This document shows, piece after piece, positions 40,276-47,897 of a stretch of DNA of 64,000 bases; positions within the stretch are counted from its first letter, which is position 1; every line of letters starts with the position of its first letter. Position numbers and translations under genes: made by a program. Below the pieces are notes generated by a model that saw nothing but the letters and a program-made list of their open reading frames with translations, was not told the origin of the DNA and did not search any database. The stretch is from Micromonospora sp. HM5-17 (GTDB lineage Bacteria; Actinomycetota; Actinomycetes; Mycobacteriales; Micromonosporaceae), in the NCBI RefSeq assembly GCF_003762835.1, contig NZ_RJWA01000010.1, forward strand, positions 1 to 64,000, written 5' to 3'.

Positions 40276-43209
40276 GTGCACCTGACCCGGTCGATGGGGA
40301 GTACCACCGGGCTCCGGCTGGTGGCGGGCGCGCTCTCGCTCACCGTGGCGGCACTCCCGCCGGTGGCGCCGACACCGACCGAGGCGTCGACCGCAGACGC
40401 CGCCGTCCACACGATCAGCGTCGACGGTACGGACACCGGTCGGACGTTCGACGGCGTGGGTGGGGTCAGTGCCGGTGGCTCCTCCCGGCTGCTGCTCGAC
40501 TACCCGGCGCCGGAACGGGAGCAGATCCTCGACTACCTCTTCCGACCGAACTATGGTGCCGCCCTCGACATCCTCAAGGTCGAGATCGGCGCCGACGTCG
40601 ACGCCACGGTGGGGGCCGAACCCAGCCACCTTCGGACCCCCGACGAGGTTGACTGCCACCGCGGCTACGAGTGGTGGCTGATGGCCGAGGCACGGGAACG
40701 CAACCCCGCCATCAGGTTCTACGGTCTGCCGTGGGGAGCACCGGGCTGGTTCGACGGTGGCTACTGGTCCACAGACCGGGTCGACTACCTCCTGACATGG
40801 CTGGAATGCGCCCGACAGAACGGCTTCGACATCGACTACCTCGGCGCGGCGAACGAGAGCGGCTTCAACCGCGACGTGTCCGTCGAGCTCCGTCGGGCAC
40901 TGGACGCGGCTGGCTTCGCGGACGTACGGATCGTGGCGACGGACAACCACAGCCCGCCGGACTACTGGTTCGCGGCACCGCAGATCGCCGCCGACCCCGA
41001 ACTCGACGCCGCGATCGACATCCTCGGCGAGCACGACGTGTGCGAGTGGCGGACGCTGCAGCGGACGTGCCACGTGAGCGAGGCGGCGCTGGCCACGGGC
41101 AAGCCACTGTGGGACAGCGAGAACAGTACGCAGGACTACGACGTGGGCGCGCAGCCGCTGGCCCGGGCCATGAACCGGCACTACATCGACGCGCGGATCA
41201 CCGGGAACCTCAACTGGGCGCTGATCTCGGCCTGGTACGACAACTTCCCGATCGGCGGCACCGGCCTGATCCTGGCGGAGCGGCCGTGGTCGGGCTCCTA
41301 CGAGGTGGGGCCGAGCGTCTGGGTCGACGCGCACACCACCCAGTTCACCGATCCGGGTTGGCGATACCTGGACGGGGCGAGCGGGTACAGCGGCGCGGGT
41401 GCGAGCCACGTCGTTCTGAGGGCGCCGGCCAGCGGCGACTACACCGTCGTGATCGAGACTCTTGACTCCGTCGGGCCGGAGACGATGCGGTTCGAGGTGT
41501 CGGGCGGGCTCTCCACCGGCCCGGTGTCGGTCTGGACCACCGACCTGACGACGGCGAGCACCGACGACGACTTCATCCGGCAGGGCAGCATCACACCGGT
41601 CGACGGAGTCTATGAGCTCACCGTCGAGCCCGGTCGTCTCTACACGATCTCGACGACCACCGGCCAGGCCAAGGGGTCGGCCGCGTCGGATGCCGACCCG
41701 GGCACCCAGCTCGCGCTTCCGTACCGCGAGGACTTCGAGCGTACCCGATTCGGCCTCGCGCGCTACGTGGCCGACGTACACGGCGCGTTCGAGGCGGTGC
41801 CGTGCGCCGGCGACCGGGACGGCACCTGTTACGAACAGCAGGTCACCCGGCCGCCACTCGCCTGGCACGACACGAACCTGCCGCCGACGACCATGGTCGG
41901 TGATCCACGGTGGTGGGGCGATTACGAGGTCAGCGTCGACGCCCTCCTCGACCAGCCCGGGCACGTCGAGCTGCTCGGCCGGGTGGACAGCCAGCAGCAC
42001 AACGCCGCCGGCTACCACCTGCGGGTCGCCGACACCGGCACCTGGTCGCTGTTCACCGAGGACGTCCGGAGCCGCACCCGAACGCTGGCCAGCGGCGCGG
42101 TACCCACGCTCGGGACCGGCACCTGGCACCGGCTCGGCCTCCGGTTCAGGGGCGAGCGGATCACGGCGCTGCTGGACGGGACCGTCCTGACCACCGTGGC
42201 GGACGCCGACCACACCACCGGGCAGGTGGGACTGCGGGTGGGCGGCTGGCAGCGCGCCCAGTTCGACAACCTGCGGGTGGTGCCGACCGGGCCGTGGCCG
42301 GTCTTCATCCCGCACTCGACGATGACCGCGACGGCGACCAGCGAACACACGGCGAACGACTTCGGGCACTACTATCCCGCCCGGCACGCGATCGACGACC
42401 ACCTGTGGTCGAGCTGGCGATCGCAGGTGGCGCCGGTCGCGCCGCTGCCGCAGGCGCTCACCCTCGACCTCGGGAAGGTCACCACCGTCGCCGGCCTCGC
42501 TTACACCCCGGCGGTCACCGCGACGGCCGGCGGGATCACCGGATACACCGTGTCCACGAGCCGGGACGGGCGGGAGTTCACGGAGGCGGTGCGTGGGCAC
42601 TGGGCGGACACCCCGGCCACGAAGACGGCACCGCTGCCGGTTCCGGTCCGTGCGAGGTACGTGCGCCTGGAGGCGACCGAGGTCAGCGGCTGCCCGGCGG
42701 CCGCGATGGCGGCCGAGGTCGCCGTGTCGCGGACGCGGCTGCCCTCTCTCGGCGAGGGCGAGCCGCCGGCCAACCCCGTACCGCGTTTCCCGCATCTCGT
42801 GCCGCCGTCGACGATGACCGCGACGGCGACCAGCCAGCAGGCGGGATACGACGCGGGGAAGGCGATCGACGGGGACTGTGCGACGATGTGGCACCAGTCG
42901 TGGAGCCCGTACACGCCTCCGCCGCAGTCGATCACGCTCGACCTCGGCGCGACCTACGACACCCTCGCGTTGCTGTACCAGCCGCGGCAGGACGGCAACG
43001 CCAACGGCATCGTCACCGACTACACGATCGCGGTGAGCACCGACGGCTCCACCTTCACCACCGTCGCCGAGGCGACCTGGGCGGGTGACGACACCACGAA
43101 GGTCGCCGAGTGGGACGCGACGCGGGCACGGTACGTCAGACTGACTGCACGCGCCGGGGTCAACGGTCACGTGTCAGCCGCGGAGATCGCCATCGCGCAC
43201 GCCGGTTGA
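40276..43209 (+). CDS. Secreted GH59 galactocerebrosidase-like beta-galactosidase with two F5/8-type modules
   Basis: 977 residues. A signal peptide (about 1-38) is followed by a barrel whose start FDGVGGVSAGGSSRLLLDYP and LDYLFRPNYGAALDILKVEI closely mirror mammalian galactosylceramidase. Acid/base Glu194 is in GAANESGF and nucleophile Glu282 in WDSENST. A beta-sandwich and a lectin-like domain (about 480-670) follow, as in GALC, then two discoidin-type modules (about 675-820 and 840-977) that share the phrase STMTATATS. These probably bind galactose-containing glycans. GTG at 40276 follows GATGAGGAGG. Substrate may be galactolipid or galactan; sequence alone does not decide. Confidence 0.9.
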   Translation: MHLTRSMGSTTGLRLVAGALSLTVAALPPVAPTPTEASTADAAVHTISVDGTDTGRTFDGVGGVSAGGSSRLLLDYPAPEREQILDYLFRPNYGAALDILKVEIGADVDATVGAEPSHLRTPDEVDCHRGYEWWLMAEARERNPAIRFYGLPWGAPGWFDGGYWSTDRVDYLLTWLECARQNGFDIDYLGAANESGFNRDVSVELRRALDAAGFADVRIVATDNHSPPDYWFAAPQIAADPELDAAIDILGEHDVCEWRTLQRTCHVSEAALATGKPLWDSENSTQDYDVGAQPLARAMNRHYIDARITGNLNWALISAWYDNFPIGGTGLILAERPWSGSYEVGPSVWVDAHTTQFTDPGWRYLDGASGYSGAGASHVVLRAPASGDYTVVIETLDSVGPETMRFEVSGGLSTGPVSVWTTDLTTASTDDDFIRQGSITPVDGVYELTVEPGRLYTISTTTGQAKGSAASDADPGTQLALPYREDFERTRFGLARYVADVHGAFEAVPCAGDRDGTCYEQQVTRPPLAWHDTNLPPTTMVGDPRWWGDYEVSVDALLDQPGHVELLGRVDSQQHNAAGYHLRVADTGTWSLFTEDVRSRTRTLASGAVPTLGTGTWHRLGLRFRGERITALLDGTVLTTVADADHTTGQVGLRVGGWQRAQFDNLRVVPTGPWPVFIPHSTMTATATSEHTANDFGHYYPARHAIDDHLWSSWRSQVAPVAPLPQALTLDLGKVTTVAGLAYTPAVTATAGGITGYTVSTSRDGREFTEAVRGHWADTPATKTAPLPVPVRARYVRLEATEVSGCPAAAMAAEVAVSRTRLPSLGEGEPPANPVPRFPHLVPPSTMTATATSQQAGYDAGKAIDGDCATMWHQSWSPYTPPPQSITLDLGATYDTLALLYQPRQDGNANGIVTDYTIAVSTDGSTFTTVAEATWAGDDTTKVAEWDATRARYVRLTARAGVNGHVSAAEIAIAHAG

Positions 43210-43345
43210 CGCGTTCCCACCGCCACCGACGCCGATCGGGCCCGCAACGGGCGACATGAGAAGGGTGATGCGGAAAGGACGAGGGAAGGGCGCCACAAGG
43301 AGGAAGAAAATCACTCCCCGCCAATCCCAACCTATACCAGAACCC

Positions 43346-43365
43346 GGGGCTTGCGGCAAGGCCAC
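43346..43365 (+). promoter_or_regulatory. Rifamycin-associated element (RAE)
   Basis: GGGGCTTGCGGCAAGGCCAC is a near-perfect copy of the inverted repeat known as RAE (GGGGCTTGCGGCAAGGCCCC as I recall it), found upstream of rifamycin-inactivating genes in actinomycetes and linked to rifamycin-induced expression. One base differs from the remembered form. TTGCGG inside it could act as a -35 box; a -10 is not clear (GAGAAT at 43376-43381 is weak). Confidence 0.75.
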
Positions 43366-43770
43366 GGTCGTGCCGGAGAATCGTCGGCCGAGGCCACGGC
43401 CTGCGGAAACGCGGGCACGATCGGCATGTGTCGTCGTCGATGGAGGGGGCGCGGTGACTCGGGGTGGGATCGGCGGTGTGGGTGCGGGCGATCGGGCCGT
43501 CGATGCGCCCGCCGGCGCAGTCGGACGCGCGGCTTGTCGCGCAGGGTGTGGCGGAACCGGGCGGTCGGCATCCGTGGTGGGACGTGACCTGGCCGGTAGT
43601 CGAGTGATCCCCCGGACGGTGCGACCGGCGCCACGCGGCGGCTGAGGTGGAGGACCCCTACCGTCCTCGCCACGACGTGTCCGGATGGCCGGCATCGGCC
43701 TGCCCCGCGATGACGGACGCCCGGTGTTGTTCCGGTGGGAGCTGACCTCCCGAAGGCGTTCCGATGTTCC

Positions 43771-43790
43771 GGCGTCGGCCAGCCGACGCC
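43771..43790. terminator. Perfect hairpin in the leader of the phosphotransferase gene
   Basis: GGCGTCGGC-CA-GCCGACGCC, 9-bp stem with a 2-base loop, about 145 bases before the start codon. It could be an attenuator or an end for upstream transcription. Confidence 0.4.
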
Positions 43791-43933
43791 TCGGAGGGAT
43801 AGGCGATGCGACTCCTCAGTGAGAGAGGCGATGCGATGCGAATGCGCCCGACCAGCGGTGCGACTCGGCGTGGGAGGTCGGTGCCGCAACCGACCGGTGC
43901 GGTGCGGAGCACCGCCGCCCCGGAGGCGTCGCA

Positions 43934-46531
43934 GTGACCGAGCCGTACGTGCGGAGCCTTCACGAGATCGACAGGACCCAGGTCGCGCTCGTCGGCGGTA
44001 AGGGCGCGAATCTGGGGGAGCTGTGTCGGGTCGAGGGGATTCGCGTCCCGGTCGGCTTCTGCGTGACGACGCACGCCTACCGGCGAATCATGGCGGAGGC
44101 GCCGTCGATCGACGATCGGCTCACCGAGCTGTCGCGCCTGACCACGGATGACCGCGAGGCGGTCCGCACGATCAGCGCGGAGATCCGCCGGACCATCGAG
44201 GGAGTCACCGTCCCCGACGACCTCGCGGCGGCGATCACCCACGCCCTCGCCCAGCTCGGCGAGCACGTCGCCTACGCGGTCCGATCCAGCGCGACGGCGG
44301 AGGACACGCCGACGGCCTCGTTCGCCGGCCAGCAGGACACGTACCTGAACGTCGTGGGGCCGGCATCGATCCTCGACCACGTCCGCCGATGTTGGGGCTC
44401 GCTGTTCACCGAGCGGGCCGTTACCTACCGCCAGCGCAGCGGCATCGACCACCGTACGGTGCAGCTGGCCGTGGTCGTGCAGCAGATGGTCTTTCCAGAG
44501 GCGGCCGGCGTACTCTTCACGGCCGACCCGGTCACGTCCCACCGCAGGACCGCCGTGGTGGAGGCCAGCTTCGGCCTCGGCGAGGCCCTGGTCTCCGGTC
44601 TGGTGAACCCGGACGTGTTCACGGTACGCGACGGCGCGGTCATCGCCAGGACCGTCGTCGCCAAGCAACGTGCCGTGCACGCCCTGCCCGACGGCGGAAC
44701 GCGGGACGTCGTGATCGCCCCGGAACGGCAGGAGCGGCCCGCGCTGACGGATGCGCAGGTCGTGCGGCTCGTGCAGCTGGGCCGGCGGATCGAGGCGCAC
44801 TTCGACCATCCCCAGGACATCGAATGGTGCCTGGTCGACGGTGATTTCCAGATTGTTCAGAGCCGACCGATCACCACGCTGTTTCCGATCCCGGAAGCCG
44901 ACGACCAGGAGAAGCACGTCTACGTCTCCGTCGGTCATCAGCAGATGATGACCGACGCCATGAAGCCCCTGGGGCTCTCCCTCTGGCAGCTGACGACCCC
45001 CGCGCCGATGCGCGAGGCCGGTGGGCGGCTGTTCGTCGACGTCACCGCGATGTTGGCCTCGCCCACGCGCCGCGCGAAACTCCTGGATACCCTGGGACGA
45101 TCCGATCCGCTGATCGGCGACGCGTTGCGGACCGTCCTCGAACGCGACGACGGTGTCCCGTCGCTCCCCGACGACGGTCCCGGCACGCCGGCGGGCGAGG
45201 CTCCGGCCCCGATCGAGACGGATCCGGCCATCGTCGCCGAGTTGGTCGCGCGCAGCCAGGCTTCCCTCGCCGCCCTGGAAGCCACCACCCGGACCATGTC
45301 CGGACCGGCGCTCCTCGACACCATCCGCGCGGACATCGCGGAGCTGAGGCGCATCCTGTTCGATCCGCTGAGTCACCAGGCGGTCATGGCGGGGATAGAG
45401 GCCACCTGGTGGCTCAACGATCACCTGCGGGCGTGGCTGGGCGAGAAGAACCCGGCCGACACCCTCACGCAGTCCGCCCCCCACAACGTCACGTCCGAGA
45501 TGGGGTTGGCGCTGCTGGACGTCGCCGACGCGATCCGTCCGTATCCCGAGGTGGTGGCCTTCCTGGAGCAGGTCGAGGACGATGGCTTCCTCGACGATCT
45601 GCCCAGGCTCCGGGGCGGGCGGGAAGCCCGCGACGCCATCCGGGCCTGGCTCGACCGGTACGGCATGCGCGGCGTCGGTGAGATCGACATCACGCGACCG
45701 CGGTGGAGCGAACGCCCCCGCATGCTCGTACCGACGCTCCTCACCACCATCAGGAGCTTCGAGCCCGGCGCCGGTCAGCGGCTGTTCGCGCAGCGTCGGC
45801 AGGAGGCGTGGACGAAGGAACAGGAGCTCCTGACGCGCGTGCGGGCCCTACCGGACGGCGAGCGGAAGGCCGACGAGACGAAGCGGATGATCGATCGACT
45901 GCGGACCTTCATCGGCTACCGCGAGTATCCGAAGTACCACATGGTCAGCCGGTACTTCGTCTACAAGCGGGCCCTGCTGGGGGAGGCCGAGCGCCTGGTG
46001 CAGGCGGCCGTGCTCCGCGACAGGGAGGACATCTTCTATCTCAGGTTCGATGAGCTCCACGACGTCGTGCGTACCCACCACGTCGACAACCAGCTCATCC
46101 AACGACGCAAGGACGAGTTCAGGTCGTACCAGGCGCTCACGCCGCCCCGGGTGCTCACCTCCGAGGGCGAGGTCATCGTCGGGGCGTACCGACGTGACGG
46201 CGTGCCGGCCGGTGCGCTGATCGGCCTCCCGGTCTCCGCCGGGACCGTCGAGGGGCGGGCCCGGGTCCTCCTGGACATGGCCCAGGCCGATCTCGAACCC
46301 GGTGACATCCTCGTGACGGCGTATACGGACCCCAGCTGGACGCCCGTCTTCGTCACCGCCTCAGGCCTGGTGACGGAGGCCGGAGGGATGATGACCCACG
46401 GGGCGGTGATCGCACGGGAGTACGGCCTGCCGGCCGTCGTCGGCGTGGTGAACGCTACGCGACTGATCTCCGATGGACAGCGGATCCGCGTACACGGCAC
46501 CGACGGGTACGTCGAGATCCTGTCCGACTGA
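43934..46531 (+). CDS. rph: Rifampin phosphotransferase
   Basis: 865 residues, almost the length of Listeria RPH and colinear with it as I remember that sequence. It phosphorylates the C21 hydroxyl of rifampin, using ATP to give AMP and Pi, and so confers resistance. The ATP-grasp domain (about 1-314) has LVGGKGANLGELC, AVRSSATAEDTPTASFAGQQ and IEWCLVDGDFQIVQSRPITT. The rifampin-binding domain (about 325-750) starts near HVYVSVGHQQMMTDAMKPLG. The swivelling His domain ends with GGMMTHGAVIAREYGLPAVV, catalytic His822. These features separate it from PEP synthase, which it resembles at both ends. GTG start follows GGAGGCG; an RAE lies upstream. Confidence 0.93.
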   Translation: MTEPYVRSLHEIDRTQVALVGGKGANLGELCRVEGIRVPVGFCVTTHAYRRIMAEAPSIDDRLTELSRLTTDDREAVRTISAEIRRTIEGVTVPDDLAAAITHALAQLGEHVAYAVRSSATAEDTPTASFAGQQDTYLNVVGPASILDHVRRCWGSLFTERAVTYRQRSGIDHRTVQLAVVVQQMVFPEAAGVLFTADPVTSHRRTAVVEASFGLGEALVSGLVNPDVFTVRDGAVIARTVVAKQRAVHALPDGGTRDVVIAPERQERPALTDAQVVRLVQLGRRIEAHFDHPQDIEWCLVDGDFQIVQSRPITTLFPIPEADDQEKHVYVSVGHQQMMTDAMKPLGLSLWQLTTPAPMREAGGRLFVDVTAMLASPTRRAKLLDTLGRSDPLIGDALRTVLERDDGVPSLPDDGPGTPAGEAPAPIETDPAIVAELVARSQASLAALEATTRTMSGPALLDTIRADIAELRRILFDPLSHQAVMAGIEATWWLNDHLRAWLGEKNPADTLTQSAPHNVTSEMGLALLDVADAIRPYPEVVAFLEQVEDDGFLDDLPRLRGGREARDAIRAWLDRYGMRGVGEIDITRPRWSERPRMLVPTLLTTIRSFEPGAGQRLFAQRRQEAWTKEQELLTRVRALPDGERKADETKRMIDRLRTFIGYREYPKYHMVSRYFVYKRALLGEAERLVQAAVLRDREDIFYLRFDELHDVVRTHHVDNQLIQRRKDEFRSYQALTPPRVLTSEGEVIVGAYRRDGVPAGALIGLPVSAGTVEGRARVLLDMAQADLEPGDILVTAYTDPSWTPVFVTASGLVTEAGGMMTHGAVIAREYGLPAVVGVVNATRLISDGQRIRVHGTDGYVEILSD

Positions 46532-46751
46532 CGGTTCGGCGGAGGGGACGCACGACCACGGTCGCGTCGCGCCCGGCTCCGTGCGGCACGAGAGCCGCTC
46601 GTCGTGGCGGCCGGTTCGGTGACGCCGATCCAGCCGCCGGGAGGGTTTCCTCCATCGTCAGGGTGACCTGAGATATCTGTTACGGTCGATGACGTGGCGA
46701 TCCCCCAACCGTCACCGCCCGAGGCGTCCGCGACGGGGAGGAACCGCAACG

Positions 46752-47897
46752 ATGGGTGCACTGTTCGACGCCCTGCATGAGCGGGTCGAGGTCAACGCGC
46801 GGCACGCGGTCGAGACGTACCGCCACGAGGTCAGCGAGTACCAGGCGATGGCGCCCGGCACCGACGAGCAGATCGGGGTGTACGACTTCGCCGTCCTCAT
46901 CCGGCGCCGATCGCTCGATCTCGCCCTGGCCGGACGGCCGCTGACCGAGAAGGACCTGGCCGACATCGCCGCGGTCGGCCGCCAGCGGGCCGAGGTGGGA
47001 CTGTCGGTCTCCTCCCAGCAGCAGGTGATCGGCCTGCACACCGCCCTGATGGTGCGCGAGGTGCACGATCTGGCCCGTCCCGAGGACGTCACCGACCTGC
47101 TGCGGATCGTCGGCTGGCTCGGTACCCAGGGTGTCCGCGCCCGCAGTGCCTACCTGCGGGGTTACACCTGCGGCGTGGGTGCCGCGCGGGTGTTGCCGAC
47201 GCGGCTGGAGATTCTGGCCCGCGCCCTGCTCGCCGACGAGCCGGTGGCGCCGTTCGTCGCCGACCTGCGCCGTACCGGGCGGTACCGCATCGTCGTGTTG
47301 ACCACGGCACGACCGGTGACTCCGGAGACGCGGTCCGAGGTGGTCGCCGCGCTCGCCGTGGACCGGATCCCGGTGTCCTGGCTCGCCGCCGACGAGGTCG
47401 CCGTGCTCGCGCCCGCCGATGTGGCGGAGGTGGAGATCCTGCGGTGGGTACGGCGTGCGACGGCCCTGATCGGACAGCCCTGCGGCGTCGGCTCGGCGGA
47501 GGGACCGGTGGGCGGGTTGGCCAGGACGCTGACGTGGGCCCGCGAGGCGAGCCGGGTGGCACCGCCGCAGGATCCTCCGGAGCGGTTACCGGCGATCGCG
47601 GACCTGTTCGTGGAGATGGCGGTGGCGCGTACACCGGCGGTCGACGGGTGGTTGCGCAGCTACGCGCGGGCGCTGGCCACCGGTCCCGACCTGGTGGCGA
47701 CGCTGCGGGCCTACTACGCCAACGACATGAACCGCACGAGCACCGCCGCCGCGCTGCACATCCACCCGCGCACGCTGGACTACCGGCTGCGCCGCGTGCG
47801 CGAGGTCACCGGTATCGATCCCGGCTCGACCGTGGGTGTCCGGCTGCTGAGTACGGCCGTCGCGCGGACGCTCGCCGCGGACCGCTACGCAGACTGA
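46752..47897 (+). CDS. PucR/CdaR-type transcriptional regulator
   Basis: 381 residues. The C-terminal helix-turn-helix of the PucR family is clear: LRAYYANDMNRTSTAAALHIHPRTLDYRLRRVREVTG, ending about 25 residues before the C-terminus. The N-terminal half is a helical domain (FDALHERVEVNARHAVETYR) seen in actinobacterial PucR-like regulators, probably sensing or dimerising. ATG at 46752 follows GGGAGGAACC; an upstream in-frame ATG at 46689 lacks a ribosome binding site. TTACGGT at 46680-46686 could be the -10 box. Its target may be the secreted-protein genes 70 bases downstream; that is inference. Confidence 0.85.
   Translation: MGALFDALHERVEVNARHAVETYRHEVSEYQAMAPGTDEQIGVYDFAVLIRRRSLDLALAGRPLTEKDLADIAAVGRQRAEVGLSVSSQQQVIGLHTALMVREVHDLARPEDVTDLLRIVGWLGTQGVRARSAYLRGYTCGVGAARVLPTRLEILARALLADEPVAPFVADLRRTGRYRIVVLTTARPVTPETRSEVVAALAVDRIPVSWLAADEVAVLAPADVAEVEILRWVRRATALIGQPCGVGSAEGPVGGLARTLTWAREASRVAPPQDPPERLPAIADLFVEMAVARTPAVDGWLRSYARALATGPDLVATLRAYYANDMNRTSTAAALHIHPRTLDYRLRRVREVTGIDPGSTVGVRLLSTAVARTLAADRYAD

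What the first reader, a model, noticed from the sequence alone, without database searches (positions are those of the whole stretch)
43346..46531. Rifampin phosphotransferase gene preceded by a rifamycin-associated element
The 865-residue product has the three domains and His822 of RPH, and a 20-base near-perfect RAE dyad lies upstream. This predicts rifampin-inducible inactivation in this strain. The 570-base gap between RAE and start codon is unusually long, hinting at a long leader or a second promoter.
Basis: partly seen in the sequence, partly recalled or inferred. Interest (0 to 1): 0.7.

Follow-up and report, generated by a model that had tools for sequence, protein, structure and literature searches.

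The report
Rifampin-inactivation gene behind decayed resistance-gene leader
An actinobacterium carries a normal-looking gene for inactivating the antibiotic rifampin behind a known rifampin-response DNA element; part of the odd gap between them is the leftover start of another rifampin-resistance gene, and comparison with relatives suggests the element is a pair of mirror-image promoters.

Summary
Window 43934-46531 encodes a rifamycin phosphotransferase (NCBIfam rph 1548 bits, cut-off 999; 20 of 21 RPH-Lm residues compared are identical). The RAE 43346-43364 has one mismatch; the genome's only other such copy precedes helR.

The 569-nt gap is not a typical leader (58 others: 38-330 nt). Bases 43424-43506 are a decayed 5' end of rgt, another RAE-linked rifamycin-resistance gene (E=1.1e-6). 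Of 59 rph leaders, 25 keep an rgt-like start: 17 end in an overlap with the rph start, 7 are fused in frame, 1 stops just short. helR leaders repeat this (9 of 11); intact RAE-rgt-helR arrangements exist. The window copy is a broken exception with about 220 unexplained bases.

The RAE lies in a rigid module: TTG in each arm and -10-like hexamers at mirrored distances (45 of 46 gene-oriented sites), often with an antisense hairpin. I propose divergent promoters with overlapping -35 elements. Antisense transcription, induction here and RNA polymerase as sensor are inferred; sense promoters mapped in M. smegmatis, and a B. subtilis spacing experiment, partly disagree.

The parts
43934..46531 (+). 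rph, rifamycin phosphotransferase, 865 aa, His822
43346..43364 (+). RAE palindrome (18 of 19)
43351..43353 (+). TTG, proposed sense -35 core inside the RAE
43376..43381 (+). GAGAAT, proposed sense -10 (19-nt spacer); start point predicted near 43386-43387
   Evidence: start point inferred
43357..43359 (-). TTG on the - strand, proposed antisense -35 core inside the RAE
43329..43334 (-). TAGGTT on the - strand, proposed antisense -10 (19-nt spacer); start point predicted near 43322
   Evidence: start point inferred
43283..43328 (-). weak counterpart of the antisense hairpin seen in relatives (5 of 10 arm pairs)
   Evidence: terminator scan found 0
43365..43423 (+). 5' UTR shared with rgt and many rph leaders
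43424..43506 (+). decayed rgt 5' end (fossil), broken by an early stop
   Evidence: nhmmer E=1.1e-6; start ORF ends after 9 codons
43590..43805 (.). unexplained stretch, no convincing relatives; holds perfect inverted repeat 43771-43779/43782-43790
43806..43937 (+). 43-codon ORF, SD GGAGGG 43793-43798, stop overlaps rph GTG (GTGA)
   Evidence: no Pfam match

Best explanation
A chromosomal rifamycin phosphotransferase, transcribed from a RAE promoter module. Shown by sequence: the enzyme, the RAE, and a module in which both arms of the palindrome carry a TTG and each is followed, at the same 19-nt spacing, by a -10-like hexamer, one sense and one antisense. Shown by comparison: the module, its 5' UTR and translation start are shared with rgt (rifamycin glycosyltransferase), and many rph and helR leaders are cut-down rgt reading frames whose stop overlaps the start of rph or helR, or that are fused to it. 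In the window this leader has decayed further (broken rgt start, about 220 extra bases), and a new short ORF with its own SD keeps the GTGA overlap. Inferred: rifamycin raises sense transcription from the RAE; the short ORF feeds ribosomes to rph by coupling; RPH then phosphorylates rifamycin at C21. Inferred and less sure: the antisense promoter fires and competes with the sense one, so RNA polymerase itself could be the sensor.
For: Enzyme: NF041857 1547.7 bits (cut-off 999); full-length match to RPH-Lm; 20 of 21 site residues. Module: 46 of 80 named rph loci have an RAE (up to 2 mismatches in 16 scored positions, up to 1.5 kb upstream); antisense TANNNT at one offset in 45 of 46 and sense NANNNT in 46 of 46, next best antisense offset 2 of 46, shuffled flanks at most 3 of 46; 132 of 135 exact sites at rph, helR, rgt, rox and arr-like genes have both. 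Fossil: nhmmer E<0.1 in 20 of 60 rph and 12 of 31 helR leaders, 0 of 118 reverse-complement and 0 of 118 shuffled controls; window E=1.1e-6 and blastn 8.9e-9 to L026, minus-strand control best 0.10. Coupling: 17 overlap + 7 fused + 1 short of 25; helR 9 of 11. One clade: all 26 fossil rows within 48 rows, 0 of 44 outside. helR follows rgt in 20 of 23 intact loci. No rgt match in this genome (matches in 26 of 61 genomes of the relatives set at a stricter cut-off).
Against: No expression data. The rgt-derived profile alone hits the window only at E=0.67; the stronger hit comes from a profile of rph leaders and has a high bias term (22.8 for a 23.7-bit score). In M. smegmatis both mapped helD promoters are sense, P1 starting about 20 bp upstream of the RAE (PMC10719064 passages); an antisense start is not reported in the passages I saw. 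In B. subtilis, moving the two promoters 17 bp closer abolished induction (PMC12802891 section 48), so overlapping promoters do not fit that model directly. NANNNT reads alike on both strands. The hairpin is rare outside rph and rgt (helR 5 of 31, rox 2 of 12, arr-like 0 of 15 with 8 or more pairs) and weak in the window. Fossil presence needs 17 changes on the tree, so loss or undetectable decay is frequent. Several older NCBIfam models named PEP synthase also pass their cut-offs.
Confidence: 0.7

Rival explanations
1. The RAE is the operator of an unknown rifamycin-responsive dimeric regulator; the antisense hexamer is incidental or a by-product of the symmetric site.
For: 19-bp palindrome with conserved outer arms that go beyond a -35; proposed in PMC10719064 and PMC12802891 (passages). 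Deleting the upstream half abolished induction in M. abscessus according to PMC10719064.
Against: Does not by itself explain mirrored hexamers at fixed spacing or the antisense hairpin with a U-rich side. The outer arms' invariance is partly built into my search pattern. The module also occurs at rph in Gemmatimonadota, Ktedonobacterales and Nannocystis loci (L029, L046, L011, L066), where a shared regulator would be needed too.
Confidence: 0.4
2. The upstream hexamer belongs to a sense promoter P1, so the module is two tandem sense promoters as mapped for M. smegmatis helD.
For: Sense promoters P1 and P2 were mapped there (PMC10719064); the upstream hexamer can be read in sense as CANNNT/TANNNT.
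Against: At -43 (19-nt spacer) a sense TTG occurs in 1 of 135 sites, and in 0-2 of 135 at every offset -48 to -37, whereas the antisense reading has TTG in the palindrome and T as first base in 133 of 135; reading TATAGC as a sense -10 would need T at -8, seen in 0 of 135. P1's reported start is not where this hexamer would put it.
Confidence: 0.25
3. The long leader is functional, as an attenuator, regulatory RNA or site of a second promoter.
For: 569 nt is long; a perfect 9-bp inverted repeat lies at 43771-43790, fold z -2.26.
Against: Length not shared by any of 58 other leaders; no Rfam match beyond chance; promoter scan 0; RAE RNA folds no better than shuffles, z 0.39; middle stretch without convincing relatives.
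Confidence: 0.12
4. The enzyme is a PEP synthase or PPDK.
For: Shared domains; PRK06241-type NCBIfam models named PEP synthase (NF004877, NF004878, NF004879) pass their cut-offs.
Against: rph equivalog scores highest; PEP_synth TIGR01418 407 bits, cut-off 740; C-terminal His domain order and rifampin-site residues as in RPH-Lm.
Confidence: 0.02

Closest known systems
RPH (RPH-Lm, Listeria; RPH family of PMC4844700)
   Same: Domain order, His822/His825, Arg663-Glu664/Arg666-Glu667, most rifampin-contact residues
   Different: Tyr351 is Trp (Tyr351Phe was tolerated in RPH-Lm); controlled by an RAE
RAE of Actinobacteria (rph, rgt, rox, arr, helR)
   Same: 19-bp palindrome, gene set
   Different: Read here as the centre of a longer mirrored module; also found at rph loci outside Actinobacteria
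B. subtilis helD/pps dual-promoter rifampicin alarm (PMC12802891)
   Same: Rifampicin-resistance genes, proposed sense and antisense promoters, antisense RNA ended by an intrinsic terminator
   Different: Theirs converge with starts 39 bp apart; these would diverge with overlapping -35 elements
Rgt (NF000354 rifamycin-inactivating glycosyltransferase)
   Same: Source of the shared 5' UTR and start region; 7 intact RAE-linked proteins scanned have it as best family
   Different: All 7 score 463-535 bits, below the curated 800; only a fragment is in the window

Membership tests
Rifamycin phosphotransferase (RPH) | Score above the rph equivalog cut-off | tested here: met
   NF041857 1547.7 vs 999; the narrower NF000283 not met (1288.7 vs 1700)
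Rifamycin phosphotransferase (RPH) | ATP-grasp, rifampin-binding, C-terminal His-swivel with catalytic residues | tested here: met
   20 of 21 residues
Rifamycin phosphotransferase (RPH) | Phosphorylates rifamycin at C21 | not testable with these tools
   needs an assay
RAE regulon | 19-bp palindrome upstream of a rifamycin-resistance gene | tested here: met
   18 of 19
RAE regulon | Induction by rifamycin | not testable with these tools
   no expression data
B. subtilis-type convergent dual-promoter alarm | Convergent, non-overlapping promoters | tested here: not met
   predicted promoters diverge and share the palindrome
Divergent promoter pair at the RAE | Two opposite -35/-10 pairs at fixed spacing | tested here: met
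   pattern level only: window AACCTA and GAGAAT at the mirrored places
Divergent promoter pair at the RAE | Transcription starts on both strands | not testable with these tools
   needs 5'-end mapping

The most novel reading that the evidence does not exclude
The RAE is not a classical operator: its palindrome is the overlapping -35 elements of two mirror-image divergent promoters, the antisense one ending at once in a terminator, and competition of RNA polymerase between them senses rifamycins. This control-and-translation start unit, taken from rgt, spread to rph and helR, where rgt was worn down to a translationally coupled leader.
Probability: 0.3. Interest if true: 0.85.

Novelty: new variant of a known kind. 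Interest (0 to 1): 0.58.

Why it matters
How the RAE senses rifamycins is stated as unresolved in a 2026 paper (PMC12802891 discussion passage). A mirrored-promoter reading makes definite, cheap predictions (two start points on opposite strands, a very short antisense RNA).

Tried and rejected
Second promoter or terminator in the gap: 0 and 0 by simple scans. Rfam: one chance hit. RAE as an RNA hairpin: window fold no better than shuffles. Relatives of the 43580-43810 stretch: only short weak hits. Intact rgt directly upstream of rph: tblastn of 3 Rgt proteins against up to 3 kb upstream of 80 named rph loci gave only N-terminal pieces (residues 1-66 at most) in L013, L026, L056, so an rgt-rph operon was not seen. 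A profile of the Rgt C-terminus found nothing in the leaders, so the idea that the leader's tail is the rgt C-terminus rests on looks alone. PEP synthase reading rejected. A first reading of TATAGC as a sense -10 was dropped.

Literature: searches (open-licence PMC only) showed no paper on rgt remnants in rph leaders or an antisense promoter at the RAE; the primary RAE, Rgt and HelR papers are not held (tried; others not looked up), so this says little about print as a whole. Seen: PMC12802891 abstract, passages and sections 45, 48, 49; passages of PMC10719064, PMC8655204, PMC4844700, PMC13246000 and PMC13099321.

Full report
What is there. The ORF 43934-46531 is complete, with third-position GC 0.90. 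It scores 1547.7 bits against the NCBIfam rph equivalog (cut-off 999); some older models named PEP synthase also pass their cut-offs with lower scores, while PEP_synth TIGR01418 does not (407 vs 740) and the narrow RPH_KJ151292 model does not (1289 vs 1700). It aligns over its whole length with RPH-Lm (5FBS and relatives). Of 21 residues named in the passages of PMC4844700 20 are identical; Tyr351 is Trp (my mapping from the alignment). The only other relatives in this genome are a gene at C34:475221-477659 (44 and 36% identity in two pieces) and a 54-residue match.

The RAE. 43346-43364 differs at one position from the 19-mer (recalled letters). Only one other 1-mismatch site exists in the genome, before helR; that protein scores 1291 bits with NCBIfam HelR (cut-off 750). 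At 3 mismatches the reversed control finds more sites than the real pattern, so those hits mean nothing. In the class, 168 of 394 genomes have GGGNCTTGNNNCAAGNCCC.

The module. These 46 are oriented by the gene, not by the module. Sense A-17, T-13, A-12 (antisense TANNNT) occurs in 45 of 46; A31 and T35 in 46 of 46; at any other offset the antisense pattern occurs in at most 2, and in shuffled flanks in at most 3 of 46. The exception is L047. Counted from the TTG of each arm both hexamers lie at the same distance. A larger set of 135 exact sites, one per locus after removing identical contexts (rph 53, helR 31, rgt 24, rox 12, and 15 more, of which 14 are arr-like by recalled motifs and L202 is unidentified) shows both in 132. 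Here the search pattern fixes the palindrome letters, and orientation was chosen by a score that used some of these columns, so the 46 are the fairer test; the window itself is not among the 135. The sites are related by descent, so counts are not independent. The scheme is a proposal: two divergent promoters with overlapping -35 elements.

Antisense hairpin. In 64 of 136 sites (135 plus the window) an inverted repeat with 8 or more of 10 Watson-Crick pairs lies just upstream: rph 36 of 54, rgt 21 of 24, helR 5 of 31, rox 2 of 12, arr-like 0 of 15. Own arms pair better than swapped arms (7.26 vs 6.44, highest of 300 swaps 6.68); the same holds within rph, rgt and helR, not within rox or arr-like. 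On the antisense strand 5.9 of 10 bases after it are U, on the sense strand 2.8. Single folds: L005 z -3.7, L006 z -1.9, window z -1.6. In the window the arms pair at only 5 of 10 and a terminator scan finds none. Swapping does not keep relatedness, so this is support, not proof, for a conserved antisense terminator.

The gap. Streptomyces-group genomes (genus of G077) have intact RAE-linked GT1 genes with the start 57-62 nt after the RAE (22 of 23 intact proteins; L130 49 and L179 48, both from other groups, make 21 and 2). Seven scanned match Rgt NF000354 best, at 463-535 bits, below its cut-off of 800, so I call them Rgt-like. A DNA profile of their first 150 bases hits 20 of 60 rph leaders and 12 of 31 helR leaders at E<0.1, 1 of 12 rox, 0 of 15 arr-like, and 0 of 118 in each of two controls. 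The window leader scores only E=0.67 with it, but with a profile of eight rph leaders, 5' UTR left out, 43424-43506 is the best place in 64 kb at E=1.1e-6 (bias 22.8), the next at 0.31; blastn to L026 8.9e-9, minus-strand control 0.10.

Reading frame. Of 59 rph leaders (window included) 54 have a candidate start in the right interval; 25 match the rgt start with up to 3 of 11 mismatches. Of these 17 end exactly in an NTGA overlap with the rph start, 7 run in frame into rph, L026 stops 5 bases before. Of the other 29, 2 overlap, 9 are fused, 18 do neither. rph starts were called by a simple SD rule, and the lengths of these leaders vary from 65 to 330 nt, so frame has survived many length changes. 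The window is in the second group: its rgt-like start ends after 9 codons, and the overlap is kept by the new ORF 43806-43937 with its own SD.

helR. In 31 helR sites, 22 genes could be located; 11 leaders have the rgt-like start, 9 end in the GTGA overlap, L153 and L164 do not. helR follows an intact rgt in 20 of 23 loci at E<1e-10; in L175 the rgt stop overlaps the helR start, in the others with a found start it lies 7-216 nt downstream (16 of 23 found). So for helR the leader most simply is an rgt gene shortened inside an rgt-helR operon. For rph no such operon was seen in the 80 loci. This genome's own helR leader has an nhmmer hit (E=2.9e-6) but out of the usual register and with no protein-level hit. 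No rgt was found in this genome, while a stricter search hit 26 of 61 genomes in the relatives set.

Tree. In a FastTree of 92 RPH proteins (window included; one partial locus, L048, left out) all 26 rows labelled fossil lie in one set of 48 rows (local support 98), 0 of 44 outside. The label needs 17 changes, so under a single capture there were many losses or decays beyond recognition. The window's fossil label is mine.

Mechanism. Most likely rifamycin induces sense transcription from the RAE, rph is translated from its own SD and by coupling, and RPH inactivates the drug; only the parts list is shown. How the RAE senses the drug is open. B. subtilis uses convergent promoters (PMC12802891), where bringing them 17 bp closer abolished induction; overlapping divergent promoters would therefore need a different kinetic scheme, and I have no worked-out one. 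Mapped sense promoters in M. smegmatis put P1's start about 20 bp upstream of the RAE, which my scheme does not predict.

Host. The window's genome shares its genus with G003, whose rph module is the same as in named Plantactinospora mayteni (L006/L089); genus by inference.

Noticed in passing
window 40276-43209: Secreted-looking galactocerebrosidase-like protein: GH59 plus two F5/8 type C domains.
   Followed up: no
window 46689-47897: PucR-type helix-turn-helix regulator just downstream of rph; no evidence that it acts on rph.
   Followed up: no
L085 3536-3554 (G000:C49): Second RAE of the genome, before helR; its leader may also hold rgt pieces and a stop overlapping the helR start.
   Followed up: partly
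L011, L029, L046, L066: RAE module with both mirrored hexamers at rph in Ktedonobacterales, Gemmatimonadota and Nannocystis, outside Actinobacteria.
   Followed up: partly
L093, L015, L023, L028, L036, L042, L050: rgt-like start codon running in frame into rph, natural fusions by the start rule used.
   Followed up: partly
window 43771-43790: Perfect 9-bp inverted repeat with 2-base loop in the unexplained stretch, just before the SD of the 43806 ORF.
   Followed up: no
G000:C34:475221-477659: Second PPDK_N/PEP-utiliser type gene, 44 and 36% identical to rph in two pieces.
   Followed up: no
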